This document shows, one piece after another, positions 13,678 to 29,143 of a stretch of 64,000 nt of DNA; positions within the stretch are counted from its first letter, which is position 1; each line of letters begins with the position of its first letter. The notes beneath the pieces were generated by a model that was not told the origin of the DNA, ran no database searches, and saw nothing but the letters and a program-made list of their open reading frames with translations. The translations under genes and the position numbers were made by a program. The DNA is from Oscillospiraceae bacterium (GTDB lineage: Bacteria > Bacillota > Clostridia > Oscillospirales > Ruminococcaceae), in contig JAFXGY010000018.1 in NCBI GenBank assembly GCA_017536625.1, forward strand, positions 62,001-126,000, read 5' to 3'.

Positions 13678-16600
13678 ATGAAAAATTTCAAACGTTTCCT
13701 GAGCTTGGCACTCGCAGTGCTGATGACCCTTTCCTACGCTCCGACCATTGCTTATGGTATCGAGCTCGAGCAGGCAACCGATGCTCTTATCGAGTATATT
13801 GAGCCTGTCGAAGAAGGCGAACTTAGCACTGAACCTATTGAATCACCCGAAGAGGGTGAAATCCTTGAGGAAGGAGGCGAAGCTGAACTCCTCGCAGAAG
13901 TAACTGAAACCACTTTAGATGGTGAAGGCACCGCAGAAAGTCCGTATCTCATCAACGATCTTGATGATCTTAAATGGTTCAGAGATGACGTAAACAGCGG
14001 CAAGACCTATGCAGGCAAATACGTCAAACTTACTGAAGATATCAATCTTACCGGTGAAGTCTGGACTCCTATCGGTACCAGCAACTATGACAAGACTCCG
14101 ACTACTGAAGGCGTCAAAATGTTTGCAGGTAACTTCGACGGCGGCGACCACACCATCACTGGTCTCTCTTCTGTTGGTTATGTTCCCGCTTCCTCCGAAA
14201 CCGGCAGCACCGAATACAGCTTCGGTCTTTTCGGTTATGTTTACGGCGCAAATATTTCCAACGTAAAACTTGCAGATGTTAATATCGAATGCGGAACCCG
14301 TACTGACAGTGAAGGTAACGAAGTCTATGGTTCCGGCGTTGCAGCTCTCGTTGGATATTATTTCCCCGCAAATGAAAAAGCAACCGTAATTGAAAACTGC
14401 CATGTTCTCAGCGGTACTGTTGCAGCTTCCAACAACATGGGCGGTCTTATCGGACATATGGACTCCCAGCTGAGCCAGCCCAAAGTTGATATCACCATCA
14501 GAGACTGCTCCAACGCTGCAGCAGTAACCACCGAAGCACGTGAAGCCGGCGGTATTCTCGGTCTTATGAACAGCGCACGCGAAGAAGGCAACTATCTTGT
14601 TACTATGCGCGGCACTGTCACTTTCGAGAATTGTGTCAACACCGGTGCCATCACTTCTCTTGGCGGCGGCGCACCCAGCGCAGGCGGCATTCTTGGCCGT
14701 GACCACAACCAGGCAGCAGGCCAGAGACTTAAAATCGTTTTCGACGGCTGCGAAAACTCCGGTACCATCACCGTAACCGCAAATGGAGAAACCCATGCAG
14801 CAGGTATCGGCGCAGGTTATTATTCCGCAGGCGCATGGCTTATTGCCAAAGACTGCGAAAACACCGGTGACGTTGTTGTCAACGGCACAGGCGATGTTTA
14901 TGCAGGCGGCCTTATTTCCTACGGCGGTGTTGTAGAACTTATCGACAGCACTTCCACCGGAACTGTAACCGGCGGCATCGGCAACACCCATGTCGGCGGC
15001 GCACAGAGTATCCTTTTCCTTGAGAAAATGGATAATTTTACCGATACTGTAAACGGCTATACTTACTACCTCAACGGCGGTACTTCTCCTGAATATGCTG
15101 CATTGGTAGATGACGCTGCATATGGCGGCAACTTCCATCTCGTTGAAACCGCATATAAAGACGGTTCCGAGTTTGTCGGTTGGTATGACAATGCTGAACT
15201 TACCGGCGAAGCATACACCGCTCTTAACGCAAATGTAAAAACCTACTATGCAAAATGGGTTGTTTGTGCTGAAAAAGTCGGCACCTTTGCTGAACTCCAA
15301 GCTGCTCTTGAAAATGGCAAAACCAACATAGAACTCACAGGAGATATCTATGTTGATGAAAGCATCGACTTGACTGGCATAGAAATTGATGTTAAAGATT
15401 ATAATCTTTACATTGCAACAATAGTTCGTGTCACAGAAGAGAAAGAGGATTACAATGTAACAGAAACCAAAGCAGGTTCTATTACCGGATTTAACGGAAC
15501 ACCCGGCTATGTAATTTCTCTTGACGGCGGCAACACCTGGATTACTGACACCACAAACGGTAATGCTCAGGCTGTTACTGTAAAAACTGACGGCACTACT
15601 GTTCTTTCCACCAGCTTCCAGAGCGCATTTACCTCTGCTAATACCGGTGAAATCGTTCACTTGCTGAAAGACGTTCATGTTCAGAGCACCAACCCCAAAA
15701 AGAACAACGGTCCTCTCCGTTCCTATTATGGCCTTATCCTTGAAGGTAACGGACACACCATTTATACCGACCTTGAATCTTCCGGTGCAAGCAATGAATA
15801 TGCAACCATCAAATTCACCTCTTATCTTGCAGGCACTGGCCCCGAAGTAAACCCCGTTCTCAAGAACGTTACTATCGACAGCCAGAAAAATGCAAAAGCA
15901 GACCTTGACTTTGTAAGCGGTGATGTAACTTTCACTGTTACCATGTATAACGTTAATCTGCTCGGCAACTGCCAGTATGCAAGCTTCGCAATGAAGAGTC
16001 CGTCCATGATTATCAACAAATCCAAAGTTGAAATCTATGACTGCACTATTCCCAGCTGGGATGCAGGTTCTGCTAATGCAATTGACCTTTACAGCGGTGA
16101 ATATTCCCTTACTCTCAACAGCAAATGTACTGTTTATGGCGGCACATTCACCAAAGACGTCACTAACTATCTTGCCGAGGGTCGCAAGATAGAAATGGTC
16201 GACGGAAAATACGTTGTTAAAATCGACCCTACATATGGCAAAGTTGCAGAGGTTAACGGCGAATATTACGAAACCCTTGCAAAAGCAATTGAAGCGGCAC
16301 AGCCCGGTGACACCATCACCTTCCTTGCTGACATTACCGAAGACGTAACTATCAGCAAAAACCTTACCATTGACGGTGCAAACAAAACTTACACCGGCAT
16401 GATGACTCTTAAAGCTGATACCACCATCCAAAATGTAAACTTTGACGGTAAAGGCTATAACGGTTATGCTGTTGAAACCCGTGGTGCAAATTATCTTACC
16501 ATTGAAGATTGTACCGCTAAAAACTACGGATACGGTTTCGTACAGCTTGCTTCCGGTACTGCTCTCACTACTGTAAAGAACGTCACCGCAAGCAACATGA

Positions 16601-19600
16601 ACTACGGTGTAAAAATCGACTACAGTAACGCAGTAGTTCTTGAAAACGTAGATATCACTGCAACTGTTGCAGCTGTTCTCAACTCCAACTATGGAGCAAA
16701 GACCATTACCATCAAAAACAGCGACATCAGCATTCTTGGTACTTGGACAAGAAACGACACTATCAAGAGCACTTATGTATTCGAGGGCGATAACTCTATT
16801 GATGAATTCGTCATTGATGCGGCTATCGACGTATTCAAACTTGCAGCAGGTGCAACCCTTACTGCTCCCGAAGACATTGAAGTAATCACCGACGTTGAAG
16901 ACCATCAGGTTAAATATGAAAACGGTGCTTACATCGTTGTTGAAAAAGATTTTGTTGCACAGGTTGGCGAAACCAAATACGAAAGCCTTGAAGAAGCAGT
17001 TGCAGCTGCAACTGAAGGCGCAACCATCACTCTTCTTGCTGACGTAGTTCTTGCCGATACTCTTACCATTCCGGCAGAAAAAACCATCACCCTCGACCTC
17101 AACGGCAAGACCATCAGCCAGACCAAAGCACAGACTGCAGGCTATCAGATGATCCTCAACGATGGTAACCTTACCATTGCAGACTCTGTCGGCACCGGTA
17201 AAATCAGCTATACTGACTCCGGCAACGGCGGCGAATATATCTCTGATACCATCTATAACAGAGGTACTCTTGTTATTAAAGGCGGTACCATTGAAAACCT
17301 CAGCTCTGAAACTGTTGCTTCCAATGGCTATCCTCACGCAGTAGATAACTATTCCGGTATCCGCGATACATCTCTCACCATCGAAGGCGGCACCATTTAC
17401 TGCGCTGAATATTCCGCAATCCGCATGTTCTGCGTAAGCGCAACCAACAAAGCTGACCTTGTTATCAACGGCGGCACTATAAAAGGCGCAGTTGATATGC
17501 AGAACGGCACCAAAGATGCTGCTCTTGGTTCTCTTACCATAAACGACGGTACCTTTGAAACCACCAAAAATGCAAACAACATTCGTTTTGCAAACTGGAA
17601 CGGCGGCGCAACCGAATACGGCATCACCGCTGAAATCAAAGGCGGTTCCTTCAACGGCGGAATCACTACCCAGTATGTTCCCGCTGCTGCAAACTGGAAC
17701 AGCAAAATCATCACCGGCGGTACTTTCTCTGTTGACCCGTCTAAATATCTTGCTGAAGGATATGTAGCTGTTGAAAACGGCGACGGCACTTACGGCGTAG
17801 AAGTATGGGACTATACTATCAAAAACAAAGCCCAGCTGCTTATGTTTGCTGAAATGGTAAACGGCGGCGAAACCTTCGCAGGCAAAACCGTAACCCTTGC
17901 AGCAGATATCGACCTTGCAGGTATCGACTGGACTCCTATCGGTAACGATACCAACTATTTCTGTGGTACTTTTGATGGTCAGAACCACATCATCAGCAAC
18001 ATGACCATCAACGTCAACACCCCCGACGAAAATGTATTTGCAGGTCTTTTCGGCGGCATCAAGAAAGCTACTGTCAAGAACCTGACCATGACTAATGTCA
18101 ACATCGACGCTGTCGGCGCAAAAGTTCGTGCGGCGGCCGTTGTTGGTATTGCACACAGCAACAGCGAAAACAGAACTGATGCTACTATCAATTTTGAAAA
18201 CATCGCTGTTAATGGCTGCACCATCAAAGCAGAAGCAAAATCCGGTTCTGCATTGGTCGGCGGTGTTGTTGGCTATAACTACCCCGCAGACATGAGCAAC
18301 ATTACCGTTTCCGACCTTACCATCAATGCTAAAGCAGAAGGCAACGAAGTTCGCGCAGCAGCCATCAATGGTTATGTCTGCGGTCAGAATATCAGCAACA
18401 ACGGCAACACCAGAGCTCCGATGACTGTTGATACTTTCAACGTAAGCAATGTTTCCATCACTGCAGATGCCTATACTGTTTTCGCAGGCGGTTATGCTCC
18501 TTATACTTATTATGGATATATCACCCTCAAAGACGGCAATATCGACGGTCTTGAAATAGACGTTGACGCACACGAAGCATTCGTCGGCGGTCTTGTTGGT
18601 TATTTCTGGAGAAGCGATAACGGTCATACCGTAAATAATGTTAATATTACTGGCATCGACTTCGACGTAACCACCGATTACCTTGGCGAAACCCGTATCG
18701 GCGGTGTTGTTGGTACTTCCCAGAGCCCCAACACCAAATATACTAACGTTTCCGTTTCCGGTAAAATCGTTGAACGCTGCAGCGACTCCGAAAACCCTGT
18801 AAACTATCACGCAAAAGTCGGCGGCTTCGTTGCAAGAACTTACGAATACGCACAGCAGACTTACACCAACTGCGTTGCTGACGTTGACGTAACCGGTTCC
18901 AACATTGCCGGCGGATTCGTTGGTAACCACAACTCCACCGTAAGCTATGTAAACTGCGAAGCAAAAGGTGACGTTACCGCAAACACCGCAGGTGGATTTG
19001 CAGGACGCATTACCGAGCACGGATATACCACCGATGTTACTTTCGACAGCTGCAAAGCTTTCGGCGTAGTTACCGGTACTAATGTTGCAGGCGGCTTCAT
19101 CGGCTCCACCGCAAACCACGGCTGGGCTGCCTGGGCAGCCGGCAACGGCACCGCTTACGGCAAAAACATCACCCTTAAAGACTGCGTTGCTTCCGAAACA
19201 GTAACTGTAACTGGCAATACTAAATACGTAGCAGGCGTTATCGGCGAAGCAAAAGTAGCAGATGGCAAAACCATCACCCTCGATAACGTAACTTATACTG
19301 TTGAACCTGCTATTTATCCTATAGTTGTTGCACAGATTGGCGATAAAGAGTATTACAGCCTCCAGGCAGCAGTTGAAGCTGCAACTGAAGGCGATACCAT
19401 TACCGTTGTTGCTGACATCGAACTTGACGAAACCCTTATCATTCCGGCAGGAAAAACCATCACCCTTGACCTCAATGGTAAGACTGTTTCCTACACTTCT
19501 AATACTCCCGGCGAAGATATGATTACCAACAAAGGTAACCTTACCATAACCGACAGCACCGAAGCTAAAGCAGGTAAACTTACTTATAACAATACTGATA

Positions 19601-22600
19601 CTACCGCTTCCAATGTAACTGTAAGCACTATCAGTACTGAACCCGGTTCTGTTCTTACTGTTAAAGCAGGCACCATTGAGAACAAAACTGTAAAAGCAGA
19701 TGGCTCCTCCATTTATCCTTATGCTATCGACATTCTCACTAACGGCTCCCTCGGCGACGTAACTGTTAATGTTGAAGGCGGCACCGTATATTCCGATTAC
19801 ATGGCAATTCGTCAGTTCAACAACGGCGAAGCTTGCAAAAATACTCTTAATGTAACCAGCGGTTATATCTACGGTGCAAAACGCGCAATCCAGATTCACT
19901 TTAAGAATAACGCTGCTTACACCACCATTTCCGGCGGTAAAGTTGAAGGTGGAAATTATTCTCTCTGCTTCCTCACCACTTCCGAAAATGTTTCTGTAAC
20001 CGGCGGCGAATTCATCGGTGATGTCTGGTATTCCGGTACCAAAGGCTTCATCTCCGGCGGTACTTACACCCAGGATGTTTTCGAATACCTCGCTCCCGAT
20101 ACCGGTCTTGTTTATGACGAAGTAACCGACACTTATACCACCACCAATCACGTTTATAATCTTTATTTCCGTGATCCTGTAACCGGCGAACAGTCTGCCG
20201 ACGTTGGTCCTCTTCAGGGCAACGACCCCGCAAGCCTTGTTGCACTCGGTAAGTTCTTCTATGCAGATTATTACAAGATGGAACTTGAGGTTCTTTACAA
20301 CGCGAAAATCGATGAAACCATCGTTATCGATTATCCGATGACTGTAAACCTCAACGGCAAAACCCTTACTGTAACCGACGATATGTACGCAACCCCTGCA
20401 ATCCGCGTTCTTTCCGACGTAACCGTTAAAGGCGGCACCATTGACGCAACCGCAGGAACCAGCACTTATGCATTCATCGTCGGTAACAGCAATACCGCAG
20501 GTACCCTCACCATCAAAGACGGTACTTATAAAGGTAGCGTAACCGCTGTTTCCGTTACCAAAGGTATTGCAACCATTGAAGACGGTACTTTTGAAGCAAC
20601 CGAATATGAAGGTGCTCATGAATTCACCCTCAACTGCATCGACGCAAACTATAAAGACGGTTCTGCAAAGATTGAAGTTGAAGGCGGCACTTTCTATAAG
20701 TTCAACCCCGCAGACAACGCAGCTGAAGGCGCAGGCACCAACTTTGTTCCTAAAGGTTATAAAGCAACTCAGGAAGGCGATAACTACACCGTAGCTGCAA
20801 ACATGATTTTCGAAATCCGTCTTACCGATGCAAACGGCGAAGCTCATTGGCTTTCTCCTTTGAGAAGCAATGACCCCAACAGCATTCTTGAAACCGGTAA
20901 AGTTTGGTATGATTCCCTCCAGGGAACTTACGATTTCACTCTTGTATTCCTTGAAGATTACGAGCTTGATGAAACCGTTGTTGTAAACTTCCCGCTTACC
21001 ATTGACGGTGCAGGCAAAACTCTTACCGGCATGATTGAAAACCGTGCTGAACTCACTATTAAAAATGTTACTGTCGATGGCGGCGATCTTGCTGCAATTG
21101 ATAACTACGGCAAGCTCACTGTTGAATCCGGTACTTATTCCGGTGCAATGTCCGCAATTTATAACAACGAACTCACTTCCGGCGAAAAAGCAGAAGTTAT
21201 TATCAAAGACGGCGAATTCACCGCCCCCGGAGATTGGTGCGCAACCATCGAAAACCGTTACGGCATTCTTACTGTCAACGGCGGTAAAATCACCGCAACC
21301 GCCGACGCAAGCTATGCTATCGTAGATACCTGCGGCGAAACCACCATCAACGGCGGCGAAATCATTTCTGCAAAAGGAACTGCTGTTGAAACTTATGATG
21401 GCAAAATCGTAATTAGAGACGGTGAATTCACCGGTAAGGTAATTGTTGAAAACCAGGCAGGTGAAGTCGACGTTTACGGCGGCACTCTTGTTTCCAACAC
21501 TCCTGAATATTATTACGGTCTTACCATTGCAAATGGCGGCGCCACCACCCTTTACGGCGGTACTTATGAAAGAGATTACACCACCGCAGCAGGCACTTCC
21601 GTTAAAGTTGCAGAAGGCTATGCAGTCGAAAACAACGGCGACGGTACTTATACCGTTAAAGAACTGCCCGATGTTGCAGCTATTGGCGAAACCAAATATA
21701 AATCTCTTGCAAAAGCAATCGCAGCTGCACAGCCCGGCGATATCATCACCTTCCTTGCTGACATTACCGAAAACGTAACCGTAAGCAAGAGCGTTACCAT
21801 TGACGGTGCAAAATTCAAGTACACCGGAACAATGACTGTAAGCGCTGGTTTTACCGTTACTGTTCAGAATGTCAAATTTGTAAACGGCGGTATTGATAAG
21901 AGCACAAAATCTACTACCGGTACTTATACCATTAAGAATTGTACCTTTGACGGTGAAGGCAAATATGCTTATCCGCTGCGTTTCAAAGGCGCAAATAACG
22001 TTACTGTTGAAAATTGTACTGTAAAGAATTATCTTTATTCTTTCCTCTACATCACTTCCGGTACAAATACTGTATCTGTCAATAATGTAACTGTTGAAGA
22101 TTGTCCCAACTATGCAATTTATTTCTCTTCCGGCGTAAATAGTGCAACCATCGAGGGCCTTACTGTTAAGAACTCTAACAACGGATTTGTTATTAATAAC
22201 ACCGCTAACAGAGCTCTTACAATCAAGAATTGCAAGATGGAAAACGTTACCACTGCTATTAATCACTCTGACGGAACCAATACCATCACTTGCACCGTTC
22301 TTGGCAACGAAAATGACTTTGGCACTGCTGCCACCAGCCAGTACGCTAAATACGTTCTTGCTGAAACAACCGCAACCCTTACTGCACCTGAAAGTTATAC
22401 TGTAACCACCAGCGTTGCAGACCACGAGGTTGTTTACAGAGATGGCAAACACATCGTTATTAATCCTATCGCAAAAGTCATCGATAAAAACAATAACGAA
22501 GCCATTTATAACAGCCTCCAGGAAGCAATCAATGCAGCAGAAGACGATGAAACCGTTGTTCTTCTCAAGGATATCAACCTTGCTGAAACCGAACTTCAGA

Positions 22601-25191
22601 CTCTCGATGGTTCTTACGATACTTACTTCCTTGTTGAAGGCAAATCCGTAACCATCGACCTTGCCGGTCATAAGATTTTCGGCGCATATACCGGTTCCAT
22701 GCTTGTTGGTGTATTCTCCACCGATAAGAACGGTCATATCACCCTTACCGGTAACGGTACTGTTGATGTAACCGCAACCGGCAGCGTTTACTGCCTTATC
22801 ACTGCGTATAATGACGGTTCTACTTTCACCATCAAAAACGGTACCTATAAACTTGATAAAGCAAGAACTAATGGTGCCCTTGTCTATTACGGCGGCTATA
22901 CCGATAGAGCTGTTACTGTTAACGGAGGTACCTTCTATCTCGGCAATATTGACGATGTAAACAGTCCCTGGATCTTCAACGTATATGGCGCAGGCGACCA
23001 TTACATTTATGTAACCGGCGGTACTTATTACTTTGATATCAACCGTCAGAAGTGGAGCAATGAAGTTCTTGTTCCCGAAACTTATTACACTGTTGACAAC
23101 GGTGACGGCACCTGGACTGTAAAAGACGGCGCTGTTGCTTATGTCAAAACCGGCATGCTCACTGGTCCTTACTATGCACCCAAAAACATCGGTTATGCAA
23201 CTATCGAAGAAGCATTTGAAGCGGCAGTTGCATATAACGACAGACCTATCACTTTGCTTGAAAGCGTAGATCTTGAAGCAAATGTTGAAATCAGCATTCC
23301 TAACATCGTCCTTGACTGCGGCGACTACACTCTTACCTGCGGCGACAAAGAAATCAAACTTACCACCGCAGAAGCAACCCTTACCGCACCCGAAGGCCTT
23401 AATGTAACAACCAGCGTTGAAGGCGCAACCGCATTCTATGACGGCACCAAATACTATGTTGGTTATGCAGTTGCAGCAATCGGCAACACCAATTATCCCA
23501 GCCTCCAGGCAGCAATCAATGCGGCTGCACAGACCGGAGATACCATTGTTCTTCTCAAGGATATCAACCTTGCTGAAGCCGAACTTCAGACTCTCGATGG
23601 TTCTTACGACACTTACTTCAAGGTTGAAGGCAAAAACGTTACTCTTGACCTTGCCGGTCATAAGATTTCCGGCGAATATACCGGCACAAATATCATGCTT
23701 GTTGGTGTATTCTCCACCGATAACAATGGTCACCTTACCCTTACCGGTAACGGCACCGTTGATGTAACCGCAACCAATAAAGTTTATAGCCTTATTGCAA
23801 ACTATGAGAATGGTTGCTCCATCACCATCGAAAACGGTACTTACAAACTTGATAACGCTTCCGACTCCCTTATTTATTCCGGAGCAGATGAATGCGTTAC
23901 CGTAAAAGGCGGTAACTTCACTCTTGGTAATGTAGGCACCGGCTCCAACGATTCTCCTTGGATCTTCAACGCTAAAGGCCAGAACACTGCAAACATCATT
24001 GTTACCGGCGGTACCTTCAATGCAGATATCTTCCATCAGTATTACATCTTTGAAGTAAAAGATACTACTGAAGTAGCAGAATTGCTCGGTGTTCCCGTTA
24101 AAGCCGCACAGAACAACGGCGACGGTACCTGGACTGTTGTTGACGCAGTTGCTTATGTAAATGAGCAGCATAAGAGCGACAAGTATTATACCCAGAATAC
24201 CGGTTATGCAACCATTGAGGAAGCATTTGCTGCTGCCGGCGAGTATGTCAACGGTAATTTGGGTTACACCGTAACTCTTGTTAAAGATGTAAATGAAACC
24301 GTAACCGTTGAACTCGGCAAAGCAATCACTCTTGAACTCAACGGCAAAACTTTCAGCGGCGAAATCGTTCTTACTGATGCAGAAAAAGCAGAACTTACTG
24401 CAGTTAAAGAGCTTAATGTAACTTCCGGCGTTGATGGATACTTCGTTGTTTATGAAAACGGTACCCATAAACTTGCAGAAGCTGTTGCAGAAATCGTTGA
24501 AACCGGCGCTATATTTACAACTGTTCAGGAAGCAGCTGATGCAGCAAGCGAAAACCAGACTGTTAGACTTCTTGCAAATTCTGAAGAAGATATTGTAATG
24601 CTTGGTAACGGAATCACCCTTAACCTTAACGGAAAAGTTCTTACCACAAGAAGATTTATTTCCTTTGAAGGTGACCAGGTGACCGACAGCTACATCGACA
24701 ATAATAAAACCATCGAAGGTACCGGTCTTCTTAAAGCAGACAAGATCATTATCGATGACGGAAACACATACGCTCCTGTCTGGACCGGCGAAGGATATCT
24801 GTTTGCTGACGTTAAATTTGCTATTAGTTCTGAAACAACCACTAACGGCGTTAAATTCACTTTCCTTCCTGCACCTATTCTTGATGTTGTAGAAATGTTC
24901 AAAGATGGCGTGGCAGATAACAAAGTGGGTATTGTTCTCCGTATTTACTGGGATTCCGTGGTTGATGGTAAAATAGCAACTTCTTCCATGGATGTCACTA
25001 TCCCTGAGAGCTTGGTTGAATCCATTTACGGACAAAATACTGGAACTCAATTCGGATATCCTAAGCGCTTCTCTGTTGAATTCACCAATGTAGCCAGCTT
25101 CTCTAATCTTTCTGCACAGGCTATGGTTATATCCGACTTTGGTCCTTCTGACTGCAGTAATGTAAAAGCCGCTCCTGTTGTCAACAACTAA
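13678..25191 (+). CDS. Giant secreted beta-helix repeat protein (3,837 residues)
   Basis: Exported surface or matrix protein, probably adhesive; no enzyme motif is recognised. Residues 1-27 are a Sec signal peptide (KNFKRF, hydrophobic core, cleavage near IAYG). An acidic linker of Glu-rich repeats (30-78) follows. Residues about 80-480 and 1380-1880 are GLUG-type beta-helix regions (GKYVKLTEDINL, FDGGDHTITGL, many GGxxG turns). An InlB-B-like segment (FVGWYDNAELTG, YYAKW) lies near 500. Nine modules of one type start near residues 856, 1094, 1885, 2667, 2932, 3154, 3266, 3492 and 3604. They have the pattern AxIGxxxYxSLxxAIxAA, TITLLxDI and ITLDLNGKT and are right-handed beta-helix-like. The modules at 2932 and 3266 share long nearly identical DNA 990 bp apart. 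The C-terminus (3700-3837) is a different, non-repetitive domain. No LPxTG, SLH, dockerin or C-terminal TM is seen, so anchoring is unexplained. The ATG follows AAGGAAGG. The 43-residue peptide gene starts 17 nt after the stop. Confidence 0.9.
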   Translation: MKNFKRFLSLALAVLMTLSYAPTIAYGIELEQATDALIEYIEPVEEGELSTEPIESPEEGEILEEGGEAELLAEVTETTLDGEGTAESPYLINDLDDLKWFRDDVNSGKTYAGKYVKLTEDINLTGEVWTPIGTSNYDKTPTTEGVKMFAGNFDGGDHTITGLSSVGYVPASSETGSTEYSFGLFGYVYGANISNVKLADVNIECGTRTDSEGNEVYGSGVAALVGYYFPANEKATVIENCHVLSGTVAASNNMGGLIGHMDSQLSQPKVDITIRDCSNAAAVTTEAREAGGILGLMNSAREEGNYLVTMRGTVTFENCVNTGAITSLGGGAPSAGGILGRDHNQAAGQRLKIVFDGCENSGTITVTANGETHAAGIGAGYYSAGAWLIAKDCENTGDVVVNGTGDVYAGGLISYGGVVELIDSTSTGTVTGGIGNTHVGGAQSILFLEKMDNFTDTVNGYTYYLNGGTSPEYAALVDDAAYGGNFHLVETAYKDGSEFVGWYDNAELTGEAYTALNANVKTYYAKWVVCAEKVGTFAELQAALENGKTNIELTGDIYVDESIDLTGIEIDVKDYNLYIATIVRVTEEKEDYNVTETKAGSITGFNGTPGYVISLDGGNTWITDTTNGNAQAVTVKTDGTTVLSTSFQSAFTSANTGEIVHLLKDVHVQSTNPKKNNGPLRSYYGLILEGNGHTIYTDLESSGASNEYATIKFTSYLAGTGPEVNPVLKNVTIDSQKNAKADLDFVSGDVTFTVTMYNVNLLGNCQYASFAMKSPSMIINKSKVEIYDCTIPSWDAGSANAIDLYSGEYSLTLNSKCTVYGGTFTKDVTNYLAEGRKIEMVDGKYVVKIDPTYGKVAEVNGEYYETLAKAIEAAQPGDTITFLADITEDVTISKNLTIDGANKTYTGMMTLKADTTIQNVNFDGKGYNGYAVETRGANYLTIEDCTAKNYGYGFVQLASGTALTTVKNVTASNMNYGVKIDYSNAVVLENVDITATVAAVLNSNYGAKTITIKNSDISILGTWTRNDTIKSTYVFEGDNSIDEFVIDAAIDVFKLAAGATLTAPEDIEVITDVEDHQVKYENGAYIVVEKDFVAQVGETKYESLEEAVAAATEGATITLLADVVLADTLTIPAEKTITLDLNGKTISQTKAQTAGYQMILNDGNLTIADSVGTGKISYTDSGNGGEYISDTIYNRGTLVIKGGTIENLSSETVASNGYPHAVDNYSGIRDTSLTIEGGTIYCAEYSAIRMFCVSATNKADLVINGGTIKGAVDMQNGTKDAALGSLTINDGTFETTKNANNIRFANWNGGATEYGITAEIKGGSFNGGITTQYVPAAANWNSKIITGGTFSVDPSKYLAEGYVAVENGDGTYGVEVWDYTIKNKAQLLMFAEMVNGGETFAGKTVTLAADIDLAGIDWTPIGNDTNYFCGTFDGQNHIISNMTINVNTPDENVFAGLFGGIKKATVKNLTMTNVNIDAVGAKVRAAAVVGIAHSNSENRTDATINFENIAVNGCTIKAEAKSGSALVGGVVGYNYPADMSNITVSDLTINAKAEGNEVRAAAINGYVCGQNISNNGNTRAPMTVDTFNVSNVSITADAYTVFAGGYAPYTYYGYITLKDGNIDGLEIDVDAHEAFVGGLVGYFWRSDNGHTVNNVNITGIDFDVTTDYLGETRIGGVVGTSQSPNTKYTNVSVSGKIVERCSDSENPVNYHAKVGGFVARTYEYAQQTYTNCVADVDVTGSNIAGGFVGNHNSTVSYVNCEAKGDVTANTAGGFAGRITEHGYTTDVTFDSCKAFGVVTGTNVAGGFIGSTANHGWAAWAAGNGTAYGKNITLKDCVASETVTVTGNTKYVAGVIGEAKVADGKTITLDNVTYTVEPAIYPIVVAQIGDKEYYSLQAAVEAATEGDTITVVADIELDETLIIPAGKTITLDLNGKTVSYTSNTPGEDMITNKGNLTITDSTEAKAGKLTYNNTDTTASNVTVSTISTEPGSVLTVKAGTIENKTVKADGSSIYPYAIDILTNGSLGDVTVNVEGGTVYSDYMAIRQFNNGEACKNTLNVTSGYIYGAKRAIQIHFKNNAAYTTISGGKVEGGNYSLCFLTTSENVSVTGGEFIGDVWYSGTKGFISGGTYTQDVFEYLAPDTGLVYDEVTDTYTTTNHVYNLYFRDPVTGEQSADVGPLQGNDPASLVALGKFFYADYYKMELEVLYNAKIDETIVIDYPMTVNLNGKTLTVTDDMYATPAIRVLSDVTVKGGTIDATAGTSTYAFIVGNSNTAGTLTIKDGTYKGSVTAVSVTKGIATIEDGTFEATEYEGAHEFTLNCIDANYKDGSAKIEVEGGTFYKFNPADNAAEGAGTNFVPKGYKATQEGDNYTVAANMIFEIRLTDANGEAHWLSPLRSNDPNSILETGKVWYDSLQGTYDFTLVFLEDYELDETVVVNFPLTIDGAGKTLTGMIENRAELTIKNVTVDGGDLAAIDNYGKLTVESGTYSGAMSAIYNNELTSGEKAEVIIKDGEFTAPGDWCATIENRYGILTVNGGKITATADASYAIVDTCGETTINGGEIISAKGTAVETYDGKIVIRDGEFTGKVIVENQAGEVDVYGGTLVSNTPEYYYGLTIANGGATTLYGGTYERDYTTAAGTSVKVAEGYAVENNGDGTYTVKELPDVAAIGETKYKSLAKAIAAAQPGDIITFLADITENVTVSKSVTIDGAKFKYTGTMTVSAGFTVTVQNVKFVNGGIDKSTKSTTGTYTIKNCTFDGEGKYAYPLRFKGANNVTVENCTVKNYLYSFLYITSGTNTVSVNNVTVEDCPNYAIYFSSGVNSATIEGLTVKNSNNGFVINNTANRALTIKNCKMENVTTAINHSDGTNTITCTVLGNENDFGTAATSQYAKYVLAETTATLTAPESYTVTTSVADHEVVYRDGKHIVINPIAKVIDKNNNEAIYNSLQEAINAAEDDETVVLLKDINLAETELQTLDGSYDTYFLVEGKSVTIDLAGHKIFGAYTGSMLVGVFSTDKNGHITLTGNGTVDVTATGSVYCLITAYNDGSTFTIKNGTYKLDKARTNGALVYYGGYTDRAVTVNGGTFYLGNIDDVNSPWIFNVYGAGDHYIYVTGGTYYFDINRQKWSNEVLVPETYYTVDNGDGTWTVKDGAVAYVKTGMLTGPYYAPKNIGYATIEEAFEAAVAYNDRPITLLESVDLEANVEISIPNIVLDCGDYTLTCGDKEIKLTTAEATLTAPEGLNVTTSVEGATAFYDGTKYYVGYAVAAIGNTNYPSLQAAINAAAQTGDTIVLLKDINLAEAELQTLDGSYDTYFKVEGKNVTLDLAGHKISGEYTGTNIMLVGVFSTDNNGHLTLTGNGTVDVTATNKVYSLIANYENGCSITIENGTYKLDNASDSLIYSGADECVTVKGGNFTLGNVGTGSNDSPWIFNAKGQNTANIIVTGGTFNADIFHQYYIFEVKDTTEVAELLGVPVKAAQNNGDGTWTVVDAVAYVNEQHKSDKYYTQNTGYATIEEAFAAAGEYVNGNLGYTVTLVKDVNETVTVELGKAITLELNGKTFSGEIVLTDAEKAELTAVKELNVTSGVDGYFVVYENGTHKLAEAVAEIVETGAIFTTVQEAADAASENQTVRLLANSEEDIVMLGNGITLNLNGKVLTTRRFISFEGDQVTDSYIDNNKTIEGTGLLKADKIIIDDGNTYAPVWTGEGYLFADVKFAISSETTTNGVKFTFLPAPILDVVEMFKDGVADNKVGIVLRIYWDSVVDGKIATSSMDVTIPESLVESIYGQNTGTQFGYPKRFSVEFTNVASFSNLSAQAMVISDFGPSDCSNVKAAPVVNN
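22558..24150 (+). repeat. Recent in-frame internal duplication in the giant gene (990-bp period)
   Basis: DNA starting GTTCTTCTCAAGGATATCAA at 22558 recurs at 23548 and stays nearly identical for over 80 bp before diverging. Similarity continues at protein level through the DLAGHKI, VGVFSTD and LTLTGNGTVDVTAT stretches. The period is exactly 330 codons. Confidence 0.8.
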
Positions 25192-25207: not shown

Positions 25208-25339
25208 ATGAAAACTTATCAAAAACCTGATGTTGAATTTGTAAAATTCACTTCATTTGAATCGCTCACCATCGATCTTCCAAAAGACCCCATCATTGGT
25301 GAAGAAAGCAACACTTTTACTGAAGACGATTTCTCCTAA
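25208..25339 (+). CDS. 43-residue peptide, candidate RiPP-type precursor
   Basis: A very short ORF with its own ribosome site (AGAAAGG, 25193-25199), 17 nt after the giant gene's stop. It begins MKTYQKPDVEFVKF and ends in FTEDDFS. Residues 4-7 form a Y-x-x-P motif followed by alternating hydrophobics, like the leader segment bound by PqqD-type RRE domains in lasso-peptide systems. There is no cysteine. The C-terminal part (IIGEESNTFTEDDFS) is rich in Ser/Thr and acids, and the last residue is Ser. The genes behind it encode an HPr-kinase-like protein, a PqqD-like domain, a peptidase and an ABC exporter. That makes it the natural candidate for the modified and exported product. Function is inferred; it could also be a spurious ORF, but the ribosome site, position and motif argue against that. 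Confidence 0.7.
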   Translation: MKTYQKPDVEFVKFTSFESLTIDLPKDPIIGEESNTFTEDDFS

Positions 25340-25344
25340 TCCTT

Positions 25345-26064
25345 ATGTTTTGTAAGATTTCGGACCTTTTAGTCGAAGTTCCCGCAGCGGGTGGAATGCC
25401 CGCCCGCTGCGGTGATTATTTAACTGATGAAACCGAACCGGCGGATATTGTTATATCCGCCGATAGGTATAAATCAGAAAAATATCCTTTGCTTTCTTAT
25501 GATAATATGTGTTACATGGAATCCGGCAGACAATTTTGTGCTAAATTGATAGAATTTGGTGGATTCTATTTACACTCCTCAGCTATTGAACTTGACGGAA
25601 AGGCCTATCTTTTTTCCGGTCCTTCCGGTATGGGTAAATCCACCCATACAAGGCTCTGGCAGTCCATATTCGGAGAAAAAGCCTGCGTTTTTAACGATGA
25701 CAAGCCCGCTCTCCGCCGCATTGACGGAAGATGGTATGCTTACGGCACACCCTGGTGCGGAAAGGACGGTATTAACCAGAACAAAAAGGTTCCCCTGGCG
25801 GGAATCTGCTTTTTGAAGCGCGGCGAGGAAAACAAAATCCGCCGCCTTGACCCAAAAGAGGCTTTGCCCCTTTTGATGTCGCAGACCATACACAAATTCA
25901 GAAAAATCGAAAATCTCGACCTCCTATTAAATAATGTTAATTACATTATAAAGGAGATACCGATTTTCGAGCTTGAAAACAGGCCGGTGGAAGAAGCCGC
26001 CCGCCTTAGTTATGAAACAATGCTTTCGGCATCCAAGGAGGTTTTTGACCGTGAAAATCAATGA
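25345..26064 (+). CDS. HPr kinase-like protein of a RiPP-type cassette
   Basis: 239 residues. The P-loop GPSGMGKST (92-100) follows HSSAIELDGKAYLFS (77-91); later come NDDKPA (117-122) and YGTPWCGK (133-140). This order matches HPr kinase/phosphorylase-like (PEPCK-fold) proteins found with lasso-peptide and other RiPP genes. There, characterised members phosphorylate the C-terminal serine of the precursor peptide. No CBS/DRTGG N-terminal domain of a true HPr kinase is present, so carbon-catabolite control is unlikely. The ATG at 25345 lies 5 nt after the peptide gene without a clear Shine-Dalgarno, suggesting translational coupling to it. The last 14 nt overlap the PqqD-like gene. Confidence 0.82.
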   Translation: MFCKISDLLVEVPAAGGMPARCGDYLTDETEPADIVISADRYKSEKYPLLSYDNMCYMESGRQFCAKLIEFGGFYLHSSAIELDGKAYLFSGPSGMGKSTHTRLWQSIFGEKACVFNDDKPALRRIDGRWYAYGTPWCGKDGINQNKKVPLAGICFLKRGEENKIRRLDPKEALPLLMSQTIHKFRKIENLDLLLNNVNYIIKEIPIFELENRPVEEAARLSYETMLSASKEVFDRENQ

Positions 26065-26317
26065 AAATTTTGTGCTCCGCGAAGTTGCGGGCAGCTGGGT
26101 TGTCATTCCCATAGGCGAAAAAAGCGTTGATTTCAATGGAATGATGAACCTCAACGAAACCGGCGTGCTCCTTTGGCGCGAACTTGAAAAAGGCGCGGAA
26201 AAAGAAGAGCTTGTTGCGGCAATTACCGGTGAATATGAAGTTTCCGCCGAAGAAGCCGCAAAGGATATTGATGAATTCATCGCTGTTCTTATGAAAGCCG
26301 GCTGCATCGAAGCATAA
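26051..26317 (+). CDS. PqqD-like protein (RRE-type peptide-binding domain)
   Basis: 88 residues from a GTG at 26051, preceded by AAGGAGG at 26036-26042 with an 8-nt spacer; upstream in-frame sequence belongs to the kinase gene in another frame. The pattern is that of a PqqD / RiPP recognition element: FVLREVAGSWVVIPIG (beta strands), FNGMMNLNETGVLLWREL (start of the helical part), then an acidic helix AEEAAKDIDEFIAVLMKAGCIE. In RiPP pathways such domains bind the precursor leader and present it to modifying enzymes. It overlaps the kinase gene, so the two products are probably made in step. A strong hairpin follows. Confidence 0.88.
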   Translation: MKINENFVLREVAGSWVVIPIGEKSVDFNGMMNLNETGVLLWRELEKGAEKEELVAAITGEYEVSAEEAAKDIDEFIAVLMKAGCIEA

Positions 26318-26353
26318 AAGACGGACCGTAAGGTCCTTTTCGGTCCGTCTTTA
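26316..26353 (+). terminator. Hairpin inside the cassette after the PqqD-like gene
   Basis: AGACGGACC...GGTCCGTCT with an inner GTAAGGTCC and a short TTTATTA tail, just after the stop. The weak T tract suggests partial termination. It would leave the peptide, kinase and PqqD genes more expressed than the export genes behind it. Confidence 0.75.
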
Positions 26354-26394
26354 TTACTTAATTTTGAAATTTATCGGGAAAGGAAATCCTGTTT

Positions 26395-27045
26395 ATGAAT
26401 GATAAAATTATAAAATGGGCAATAACTGGTCTTGCGGTTTTGCTTGTAATTGTTCTTGTTATAATCTGCGTTAAAATGGACATATTCATCGAGCCTTTTG
26501 ACGGAATCAACCACAGCAAGGATGAATCTTCTTCTCAAAGTGAAAGTGAAGCCATGAGTGAAACCGAAGAACCCTCCGAAGGTTCTGAAGAAAGCGAACC
26601 CGGCAGCGAAATTGACTCCGGCGATGAAGAAGAATCCAAACCTTCCGGAAACGGAAACGCCACCAACAATTCCGCATCTTCTTCCACTTCCTCTGTAACC
26701 AATATTTCCGGAAGCGGAAATTCCGGAAATACTTCTTCAAGACCTTCCGGCAACAGCGGAAGCACTTCTTCTAACACTTCTTCCGGAAGCAGTTCCGGTT
26801 CTTCCTCCGCTCCTTCCGTTGATGATTCCGAGCCTGCTGAAAAAGTTACATATGAAGAATATATGGCTATGAACAATGAAGAACAGAAAAAATATATGAA
26901 TTCTTTCTCTGATCTTGATGCTTTCTTTAATTGGTTTGATGAAGCAAAAGCAAAATATGATGAAGAACATCCTTCCATCGAAGTTGGCGAAGATGGCAAA
27001 ATCGACCTCGGCGAAATCATCGGCAGCGGAAGCAGCAACCCCTGA
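26395..27045 (+). CDS. Membrane-anchored Ser-rich protein with conserved-looking C-terminal domain
   Basis: 216 residues, family not recognised. Residues 8-27 are one membrane helix (WAITGLAVLLVIVLVIICVK) after a short Lys-containing N-terminus, so the rest should face outward. Residues 42-82 are Ser/Glu acidic, and 85-140 a Ser/Gly/Asn low-complexity linker. Residues 150-210 form a compact, non-repetitive domain (VTYEEYMAMN, EEQKKYMNSF, DAFFNWFDEAKAKYDEEHP, VGEDGKIDLGEII). The ribosome site is GGAAAGGAAA and the next gene starts 2 nt after its stop. The position between the PqqD-like gene and the peptidase/exporter genes suggests a tethered partner. It might receive, hold or process the exported peptide, or be the product itself. 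This is inference. Confidence 0.8.
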   Translation: MNDKIIKWAITGLAVLLVIVLVIICVKMDIFIEPFDGINHSKDESSSQSESEAMSETEEPSEGSEESEPGSEIDSGDEEESKPSGNGNATNNSASSSTSSVTNISGSGNSGNTSSRPSGNSGSTSSNTSSGSSSGSSSAPSVDDSEPAEKVTYEEYMAMNNEEQKKYMNSFSDLDAFFNWFDEAKAKYDEEHPSIEVGEDGKIDLGEIIGSGSSNP

Positions 27046-27047
27046 TT

Positions 27048-27509
27048 ATGCCGGAAATAAAACAGATCGAAACCAGCCTTGAAGAGCTTATGCCCCTTAT
27101 GAAAGAATGCCTTGCGGCGGGGAAATCCTTCCGGTTTTCTCCCAGGGGAATCAGCATGCTGCCCATGCTTCGGCAAGGGAAAGACAGCGTTTTGCTTTCT
27201 CCCCTTCCGGAAAAGCTCCGAAAATACGATATTCCCCTTTACCGGCGGGATAACGGAAAATATGTTTTGCACCGCATTTCCGAAACCGGCGAAACTTTCA
27301 CCTGCATCGGGGATAACCAGTTCGTTTATGAAAAAGGTATTCGCCGTGAACAGATGATTGCCGTTGTTACGGAATTTTATCGGGGCGAAAAACGCCATTC
27401 GATAAACGAACCGGCATATAAAATCTATTGCCGGCTCTGGAACTTCAGCCGCCCTTTGCGGCATTTCGCTTGGCGGGGAATCAATTTTTTGAGGAGGCAC
27501 CTCAAATGA
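27048..27509 (+). CDS. S24/S26-like peptidase (S26B-type Ser-His signature), no membrane anchor
   Basis: 153 residues. Key motifs resemble S26B signal peptidases: RGISMLPML (Ser37 as nucleophile), KYVLHRI (His75 in the place of the S26B general base) and CIGDNQ (Asp89, equivalent to the GDNN box). Signal peptidases normally carry at least one membrane helix. None is evident here; instead the C-terminus is strongly basic and aromatic (WNFSRPLRHFAWRGINFLRR) and could lie on the membrane surface. A leader-removing protease for the 43-residue peptide is the simplest role. The stop overlaps the ABC transporter start (ATGA). Confidence 0.82.
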   Translation: MPEIKQIETSLEELMPLMKECLAAGKSFRFSPRGISMLPMLRQGKDSVLLSPLPEKLRKYDIPLYRRDNGKYVLHRISETGETFTCIGDNQFVYEKGIRREQMIAVVTEFYRGEKRHSINEPAYKIYCRLWNFSRPLRHFAWRGINFLRRHLK

Positions 27510-29143
27510 AAAAAACATCCACGGTTTTCTGGATAATCAAAAAAATTCGCCGGAGAATTCCGGCGATTTTAATAATGACCTTTGCCCATATCGGCCAGGC
27601 ACTTTTGGGTGTTGCTTTTGCCCTTGGGACAAAAAACGTCATTGATGCGGCAACTTCCGGCATTCGGGAAGATTTTCTTTTTGCCTGCATAAAACAGGGT
27701 GCAATAATTGCCGGGGTGCTCCTTTGCACCATTTTTTACCGCCATCTGCACGATACCCTTTCTGCGGAACTTGACCGGGACTGGAAAAGGGAGCTTCTTA
27801 ACGGAATTCTTCATGGAGATTACCCTTCCGTTTCCGCTTTTCACAGCGCGGAACTTATTAACCGCCTTAATAACGACGTGCGCACGATCAATGACGGCGT
27901 GCTTGCGATTCTTCCGAATCTTTCCGCTATGGCCGCAAGGCTTGCTTCCGCCGCGGCGGTCCTGATAACCCTTGAACCGCTTTTCGGCGGCGCCGCAATA
28001 ATCTGCGGGCTGCTTTTCGTTTCTATAACCGCCGCCCTGAGAAAGCCCCTCAAGGCGCTCCATAAAAAGGTAAGCGCCGCGGACGGCAAAGTTTCGGGCA
28101 TCATTCAGGAATCCATCGAAAAGCTTCTTATGATACAGTCCATGGACGTTGCTTCCGAAATGGAAAAGCGCACGGACGAACTGCTTGGGGAACGTTTTTC
28201 GCTCCAGCGAAAAAGAAAGAATCTTTCCCTTGTTGCAAACACGGGCATAAGTTTTCTTTCCCAGATGGCAGGGTTCATCGCCCTTGTGTGGTGTTCCTTC
28301 AATCTTCTTAACGGGAACATGACCTTTGGCGAACTTACCGCCGTAACACAGCTTGTAAGCCAGCTCCAGATGCCGCTGGTGGGCATTTCCGGCATTATTC
28401 CGCAATATATAGCCATGGCGGCAGCGGCGGAAAGAATCATGGAAATTGAGGCTATCGAAAGGGAACCTTCTCCCATGGAAGGTGAACCTTCGGAAATTTA
28501 TTCTTCCATCGAAAAAATTTCCGCGGAAAATCTTGCTTTTTCCTACGGAAGAGAAACTGTCTTTGAAAATCTTTCCTTCTCCCTCGAAAAAGGTTCTTTC
28601 TGCGTTGTTCTCGGTCCTTCCGGAAGCGGAAAAAGCACCCTTCTTAAACTGATGCTCGGGGTTCTTCGCCCGGAAAGCGGCGAAATCTTCTTCGGAACTT
28701 CCGGCGAAAAAATCCCCATGGACCGCAGAACCAGAAGGCTTTTTGCCTATGTTCCCCAGGGTAACCTGCTTCTCAGCGGAACGCTCCGGGAAAACCTTGT
28801 TATCACAAATCCCACCGCAACGGAAGAAGAAATCCGCCTTGCCACTTATGTAAGCGCCATGGATGATTATATCGGAACTCTTCCCCATGGGCTTGATACC
28901 CTGCTTGGAGAAAACGGTTCCGGACTTTCGGAAGGTCAGGCACAGCGCCTTGCCATTGCAAGGGCGGTGCTTTGCGGTTCGCCGATTCTTCTTCTTGATG
29001 AATGCACTTCTGCACTCGATTCCGAAACGGAAATAAAAGTTCTCGAAAGGCTCCACGCTCTTCCGGATAAAACTTTTATCGCGGTGACCCACCGTCCCGC
29101 CGCTTCTGAAATTGCGGATTCGAAAATCCTTATTGAAAAGTAA
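27506..29143 (+). CDS. ABC exporter, fused permease and ATPase
   Basis: 545 residues from the ATG at 27506, which follows GAGGAGG and overlaps the upstream stop; a longer in-frame start would lie inside the peptidase gene. An N-terminal exporter membrane domain (about six helices within residues 1-300) is followed by an ATPase with Walker A GPSGSGKST (about 370), signature LSEGQAQRLAI (about 473), Walker B ILLLDE (about 494) and H-loop VTHR (about 525). There is no N-terminal C39 peptidase domain, so leader removal would need a separate enzyme such as the S26-like protein before it. It ends the cassette and is followed by a terminator. Confidence 0.93.
   Translation: MKKTSTVFWIIKKIRRRIPAILIMTFAHIGQALLGVAFALGTKNVIDAATSGIREDFLFACIKQGAIIAGVLLCTIFYRHLHDTLSAELDRDWKRELLNGILHGDYPSVSAFHSAELINRLNNDVRTINDGVLAILPNLSAMAARLASAAAVLITLEPLFGGAAIICGLLFVSITAALRKPLKALHKKVSAADGKVSGIIQESIEKLLMIQSMDVASEMEKRTDELLGERFSLQRKRKNLSLVANTGISFLSQMAGFIALVWCSFNLLNGNMTFGELTAVTQLVSQLQMPLVGISGIIPQYIAMAAAAERIMEIEAIEREPSPMEGEPSEIYSSIEKISAENLAFSYGRETVFENLSFSLEKGSFCVVLGPSGSGKSTLLKLMLGVLRPESGEIFFGTSGEKIPMDRRTRRLFAYVPQGNLLLSGTLRENLVITNPTATEEEIRLATYVSAMDDYIGTLPHGLDTLLGENGSGLSEGQAQRLAIARAVLCGSPILLLDECTSALDSETEIKVLERLHALPDKTFIAVTHRPAASEIADSKILIEK

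What the first reader, a model, noticed from the sequence alone, without database searches (positions are those of the whole stretch)
25208..29143. Compact RiPP-like cassette without a recognised cyclase: peptide, HPr-kinase-like, PqqD/RRE, tethered Ser-rich protein, S26B-like peptidase, ABC exporter
Six genes are packed with gaps of 2-5 nt or overlaps, apart from one internal hairpin, behind a giant surface-protein gene. PqqD-like RRE domains and HPr-kinase-like proteins are both known partners in RiPP (notably lasso) pathways. Here, however, no asparagine-synthetase-like cyclase, transglutaminase-like B2 protease, radical SAM or YcaO enzyme exists within 12 kb either side. A kinase may therefore be the only tailoring enzyme: a phosphopeptide or a new class.
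Basis: partly seen in the sequence, partly recalled or inferred. Interest (0 to 1): 0.9.

Follow-up and report, generated by a model that had tools for sequence, protein, structure and literature searches.

The report
Linear phosphopeptide pathway with surface partner
A gut-type bacterium carries a compact set of genes that very probably makes a small, linear, phosphate-decorated peptide by a route first reported in 2026, and in several related bacteria the peptide ends in the same short tag as a protein anchored on the cell surface, which hints at a job in surface recognition.

Summary
25208-29143 encodes peptide A, HPrK-like kinase K, PqqD/RRE B, tethered Ser-rich protein T, Ser-His-Asp signal-peptidase-like protease S and exporter D. 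This is the gene order, plus T, of the LPP (linear polyphosphorylated peptide) RiPP family (PMC13381572, May 2026), where phosphorylation by the kinase and RRE-guided leader cleavage without a cyclase were shown in a Bacilli cluster. It is a Clostridia variant: N unlinked, T added, and the acceptor serine kept by most relatives missing.

New here: T-type genes recur beside K. In 15 loci holding both, the C-termini of A and T match within loci far better than between loci (0 of 100,000 permutations as good; 1 of 120 in five loci fetched after the idea arose). The match is clear in 6 of 15 and not significant in the window itself. T's helical domain recurs five-fold in proteins of capsule-type gene clusters in two sister genomes. 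Function is inferred; nothing was tested at the bench.

The parts
25208..25339 (+). A, precursor peptide, 43 aa; YxxP leader, predicted cut after residue 19 (FES), core LTIDLPKDPIIGEESNTFTEDDFS
25345..26064 (+). K, HPrK-like kinase, 239 aa; P-loop GPSGMGKSTH and NDDKP motif
26051..26317 (+). B, PqqD-type RRE, 88 aa, GTG start; Asn and Asp matching LppB N33 and D70
26317..26352 (+). hairpin between B and T, terminator- or attenuator-like
26395..27045 (+). T, membrane-tethered Ser-rich protein, 216 aa; one copy of a helical domain near the C-terminus, tail EVGEDGKIDLGEIIGSGSSNP
27048..27509 (+). S, SipW-like Ser-His-Asp leader peptidase, 153 aa (Ser36, His75, Asp89)
27506..29143 (+). D, MsbA-like ABC exporter, 545 aa
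13678..25191 (+). giant surface protein gene upstream, 3837 aa, beta-helix match; neighbourhood of the cassette in close relatives, role unknown

Best explanation
The cassette is a Clostridia variant of the LPP (linear polyphosphorylated peptide) RiPP pathway. B binds the YxxP leader of A; K phosphorylates a hydroxyl residue near the start of the core (core Thr2 is the nearest candidate, since the usual serine is absent); B presents the leader to the Ser-His-Asp protease S, which cuts 16 residues on, counting the Tyr as the first; D exports the linear core. The NTP_transf_5 enzyme N, encoded on another contig behind capsule-type genes, probably adds a further group. T is an added partner anchored in the membrane, with a Ser-rich stalk, a helical domain and a tail outside the cell, and probably holds or receives the peptide at the surface or capsule. 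Shown here: gene set, order, conserved motifs, conservation of the peptide, no B2 match in the genome. Shown by others for a Paenibacillus homologue: phosphorylation, RRE binding, cleavage. Inferred: every biochemical step in this organism, the acceptor residue, and the roles of N and T.
For: Same order and functions as lppA-K-B-S-D. The Ser/His/Asp matching LppS S29/H68/D93 is in 122 of 122 S rows (120 after duplicate loci are dropped); the RRE Asn in 128 of 135 and Asp in 115 of 135 rows, matching LppB N33 and D70 (2 of the 135 rows from duplicate loci). Forty leaders from 34 of 181 unique K loci share one register. K has B nearby in 105, S in 99 and both in 91 of 143 loci with enough flank. 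No B2 and no full-length cyclase match in the genome. N occurs in all 3 genus genomes with the cassette and 1 of 12 without (Fisher p 0.009); in all four N lies behind relatives of the same capsule-type genes. The cassette adjoins capsule-type genes directly in L084 and L087 (gene names recalled), as the paper reports for Bacilli.
Against: K and S score below curated cut-offs and their folds could not be predicted. The window core has Ile at 3 and Asp at 4, not Ser; none of 7 peptides of the window group has Ser4 against 29 of 33 others. N is not in the cluster. The HQ part of the Bacilli leader consensus is absent. In 52 of 143 K loci B and S are not both seen nearby, so K alone does not define the pathway. 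No role of T is tested.
Confidence: 0.82

Rival explanations
1. K, B and S serve mainly the large surface proteins (T or the giant gene product): the short peptide is an adaptor or regulator, and the kinase acts on the surface protein's tail before export.
For: In 14 loci a T-type gene ends within 200 nt upstream of K, or overlaps it (L203 and L192 are doubtful as T). In L162 A, T and K stand together with no B or S found on that strand nearby. A and T tails match in several loci. In L060 one open frame runs from a lipoprotein stalk into a full YxxP leader and core.
Against: The other T proteins show no YxxP leader; T has an N-terminal export signal or membrane segment, so a cytoplasmic kinase would have to act before export; the tested homologue acts on the short peptide.
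Confidence: 0.1
2. It is a decayed or split lasso peptide cluster whose cyclase and B2 lie elsewhere or were lost.
For: K, B1-type RRE and N are shared with paeninodin-type lasso clusters.
Against: No B2 match in the 97%-complete genome; Asn_synthase matches cover only 61 and 38 of 354 positions; S is present with its triad intact; the leader has Tyr where paeninodins have Trp; the same layout without cyclase recurs in relatives (where a cyclase was sought only by an SGGxDS motif).
Confidence: 0.04
3. As the main reading, but the phosphate sits on the C-terminal Ser of A, as in paeninodin, or on another distal Ser or Thr.
For: The peptide ends in DDFS and lacks Ser at core 3 and 4; HPr kinases that modify a C-terminal Ser of a lasso precursor are reported (passage of PMC7533575).
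Against: The sister peptides in L005 and L006 do not end in Ser; in the tested LPP the site is core Ser3.
Confidence: 0.25

Closest known systems
LPP family, lppA-K-B-S-D-N of Paenibacillus alginolyticus (PMC13381572)
   Same: Gene order A-K-B-S-D; discrete RRE; SipW-like Ser-His-Asp leader peptidase; MsbA-like exporter; HPrK-like kinase; YxxP leader with FEx at the same distance from the Tyr; no cyclase; link to capsule-type genes
   Different: Clostridia; N unlinked; tethered T gene between B and S; hairpin between B and T; no Ser at core 3 of the window peptide; most other Clostridia peptides found here have their conserved Ser at core 4
Paeninodin-type phosphorylated lasso peptides
   Same: HPrK-like kinase, PqqD-type B1, NTP transferase, ABC exporter
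   Different: They need the B2 protease and a macrolactam cyclase, neither found here; Trp instead of Tyr in the leader
ScmC (SynChlorMet) and HprK-related kinase models of NCBIfam
   Same: Best specific NCBIfam matches of K
   Different: Scores far below cut-off (33 bits against 125; 16 against 200)

Membership tests
LPP RiPP family | SpI/SipW-like leader peptidase with Ser/His/Asp triad | tested here: met
   Ser36/His75/Asp89; 122 of 122 rows
LPP RiPP family | Discrete RRE with Asn and Asp equivalent to LppB N33 and D70 | tested here: met
   Both in window B; 128 and 115 of 135 rows. Equivalence set by motif position, not by aligning LppB itself
LPP RiPP family | HPrK-like kinase beside the RRE | tested here: inconclusive
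   Motifs and gene order fit; library scores below cut-off; fold not predicted
LPP RiPP family | MsbA-like exporter | tested here: met
   ABC_membrane and ABC_tran; MsbA_rel among the best NCBIfam rows, below its cut-off
LPP RiPP family | NTP transferase N in the cluster | tested here: not met
   Absent from the cluster; one PF14907 gene on contig C49. N is near K in 33 of 143 loci with enough flank
LPP RiPP family | Leader consensus YxxPxVLxHQxIxFETxxS | tested here: inconclusive
   YxxPxV and FES in the right register; HQ and the final S absent
LPP RiPP family | Ser at core position 3 as phospho-acceptor | tested here: not met
   Core starts LTID; sister L006 has ITS. Hence filed as a variant that works like an LPP, not as a full member
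LPP RiPP family | RRE falls in the LPP clade of the RRE tree | not tested
   No RRE tree built; of the paper's two RREs only PbaB1 (9x90) appeared in the PDB search
LPP RiPP family | Product is a linear polyphosphorylated peptide | not testable with these tools
   needs mass spectrometry
Lasso peptides | B2 transglutaminase-like protease | tested here: not met
   PF13471 no match in the genome
Lasso peptides | Asn-synthetase-like macrolactam cyclase | tested here: not met
   Two PF00733 matches over cut-off, but only 61 and 38 of 354 positions, on contigs C31 and C10, not near the cassette

The most novel reading that the evidence does not exclude
In Clostridia the exported phosphopeptide and a co-encoded surface-anchored stalk protein (lipid, TM, S-layer or giant-protein type) carry the same C-terminal tag, which differs from locus to locus but is matched within a locus. 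The LPP would then be one half of a two-part self-recognition system: a diffusible or capsule-bound phosphopeptide, and a tethered copy of its tag that acts as dock, decoy or immunity determinant. In the window's group the stalk's helical domain, repeated five-fold in capsule-locus proteins of sister genomes, would hold the peptide at the capsule.
Probability: 0.3. Interest if true: 0.85.

Novelty: new variant of a known kind. Interest (0 to 1): 0.62.

Why it matters
The LPP paper (2026) studied a Bacilli cluster and calls the biological role unknown. K relatives occur in 126 of 394 genomes sampled from the window's order, not all of them with the full cassette, so related pathways are common in Clostridia of gut and rumen. 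The matched tails are, as far as I know, the first sequence clue to function: they point to a partner on the producer's own surface and to the capsule, and they name a test that needs only the change or removal of a short tail.

Tried and rejected
Lasso reading: rejected. Chance ORF for the peptide: rejected. Tail match in the window itself: tried, not significant (1497 of 5000 shuffles as good with gap cost 11, 503 of 5000 with gap cost 6; the five loci window, L005, L006, L086, L207 among themselves 17 of 120 permutations). A scan for shared 5-mers among all small ORFs gave mostly matches between unlikely frames, and was not used as evidence (its output was cut). PDB sequence search with K found nothing. 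Pfam gave T no family. DUF2153 passes its cut-off on the repeat protein of L235 (9e-6) but no single stretch passes, so I treat it as noise of repeats. Structure prediction of S and K was switched off. My first gene map missed the capsule-type genes before N in the window's own genome because it kept longer antisense frames; a direct comparison found them.

Rows dropped and limits: 3 duplicate K loci were removed, leaving 181. Loci were taken as best K matches of three searches, so frequencies are not unbiased. T was called by composition: 30 loci flagged, some spurious (for example the frame at -4310 in the window, L068, L124, L203); these were kept in the permutation test. The fused L060 peptide was left out of the test. 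L084 (T not Ser-rich) and L085 (partner is the giant protein) are not among the 15. The idea arose on L085, L086, L160 and L162 before the test; only L164-L223 are independent of it.
Full report
What is there. The window lies on contig C14 of a 1.90-Mb, 60-contig genome assembly, 97% complete. B is a clear PqqD domain and D a clear ABC exporter; K and S match library models only weakly. B is the only PqqD match in the genome.

Is the peptide real. Three of 15 genomes of the genus have K, the window's own and two sisters. Both sisters carry giant gene, A, K, B, T, S, D (L005, L006). A more distant locus in a sheep-colon Clostridia MAG (L084, K 56% identical) has giant gene, A, K, B, a short T, S, N and then capsule-type genes. 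A leader profile from 37 peptides outside the genus puts the window peptide first of 605 frames.

What it is. The order A-K-B-S-D, with N, is that of the LPP family of Popov et al., May 2026 (PMC13381572; abstract, Results and Discussion read). They report, with a B. subtilis host and in vitro assays, that LppK puts phosphates on core Ser3, that LppS cuts the leader with the help of the RRE LppB, that S29, H68 and D93 of LppS are needed, and that N33 and D70 of LppB matter for binding the YxxP leader; the cluster has no cyclase. Here the matching Ser, His and Asp of S stand in 122 of 122 rows, the RRE Asn in 128 of 135 and the RRE Asp in 115 of 135. The main text of that paper holds none of the strings clostrid, lipoprotein, membrane protein, ruminococc, immunity or S-layer; its supplement was not open to me. 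A search for the family name found that paper alone; the other paper searches listed none that I recognised from title and abstract as describing such Clostridia cassettes or shared tails, but only this library of open papers was searched.

How it differs. N is not in the cluster; one PF14907 gene sits on contig C49. In the genus N occurs in 4 of 15 genomes, including all 3 with the cassette. In all four it lies behind relatives of the same genes, which look like capsule chain-length, phosphatase and glycosyl-phosphate transferase genes (names recalled). Forty leaders from 34 of 181 K loci share one register: Tyr, then mostly Phe at -6, Asp/Glu at -2, predicted cut, Ile/Leu/Val/Met, often Thr, x, Ser. 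Ser at core 4 is present in 29 of 40. It is missing in all 7 peptides of the window's group (window, L005, L006, L207, L084, L085, L086) and in 4 of 33 others (Fisher p 1.8e-5; related sequences, group chosen after looking, so the value is only indicative). A tree of the 34 K proteins supports six of the seven as a clade (100/99); L086 joins them with weak support (79/85). So in this group the acceptor must be another residue, perhaps Thr2, or the chemistry differs.

The tethered protein T. Ser/Thr/Gly-rich anchored proteins were flagged by composition in 30 of 181 K loci, some of them doubtful. In 14 loci one ends within 200 nt upstream of K or overlaps it. Anchors differ: TM segment in the window, lipobox in L160 and L175, S-layer domain in L198. 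In the 15 loci with both A and T, the last 20 residues of A and T score 401 in sum within loci, against a permuted mean of 271.8 (sd 23.3), reached by 0 of 100,000 permutations. With whole cores the values are 436 against 279.1, 1 of 100,000; for ten earlier loci 22 of 100,000; for the five loci fetched after the idea arose 161 against 108.8, 1 of 120, the smallest value possible. Six of the 15 are clear by eye: L038, L086, L160 (ELPFVPA), L162 (PNETEIL), L166 (IELPII), L198 (EGDNGTGWG). Nine are not: window, L005, L006, L054, L060, L068, L175, L192, L207. Outside the 15, the giant protein of L085 ends GGWETETENPEGWE and its peptide GGWETDVSLPEGWM, and two anchored proteins of L180 share an 18-residue tail. 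In six matched stretches 20 of 48 degenerate codons differ; the stretches were picked for identical residues, so this shows only that silent sites have drifted. In L060 one open frame runs from a lipoprotein stalk into a full leader and core.

A link to the capsule. T of the window, L005, L006, L207 and L084 shares a helical-looking domain of about 40 residues. A profile of it, run on 9,887 frames of the fetched loci, found beyond those five only two proteins, seen in overlapping loci: membrane proteins with five copies each, E 6e-28 and 2e-24. They sit among nucleotide-sugar-type genes on the contigs that carry N in the sisters G010 and G011. In a draw of 247 family genomes the profile matched 2, the window's genome and G012, where it lies on the contig of N. 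That draw held only four genomes of the genus in the rows shown (G000, G012, G013, G014); the single-sequence search of all 15 found G000, G010 and G011 and missed G012, so other members may be missed too.

Judgement. The pathway assignment rests on order, motifs and homology to a tested system. The role of T is the open and more interesting part. My reading is that T displays a tag related to the peptide core and that the peptide works at the cell surface or capsule, with T as dock, decoy or immunity factor. In the window itself this is suggested only by T and its domain, not by a significant tail match.

Noticed in passing
window 25382-25412: A 13-bp G+C-rich hairpin lies inside the start of K, just after A; it could lower expression of the genes behind A.
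   Followed up: no
L060 7454-7996: One open frame joins a lipoprotein with Ser/Thr stalk to a complete YxxP leader and core ending ELPIIPIR; a GAGGGGG stretch precedes the internal ATG.
   Followed up: partly
L180: Two different anchored proteins upstream of K share the tail EPSMEDLATSDEGWTGIY; no leader peptide was detected there.
   Followed up: partly
L234 1183-2085; L235 1210-2064 (minus strand): Membrane proteins with five copies of the T domain among nucleotide-sugar-type genes of two sister genomes, on the contigs that carry N.
   Followed up: partly
L036, L046, L068, L073, L075, L096, L105, L137, L150, L159, L166: Eleven K loci with a radical SAM gene nearby (10 of the 143 loci with enough flank): possibly a mixed class with a second modification.
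   Followed up: no
L161 6495-7736: In a Spirochaetales MAG a frame with an SGGxDS motif stands next to K-B-S-D-N; it could be a cyclase-type enzyme. Seen by motif only.
   Followed up: no
window 13678-25191: 3837-aa surface protein with a right-handed beta-helix match; giant genes also stand upstream of the cassette in L005, L006, L084, L085 and L086 (partial at contig or locus ends in some).
   Followed up: partly
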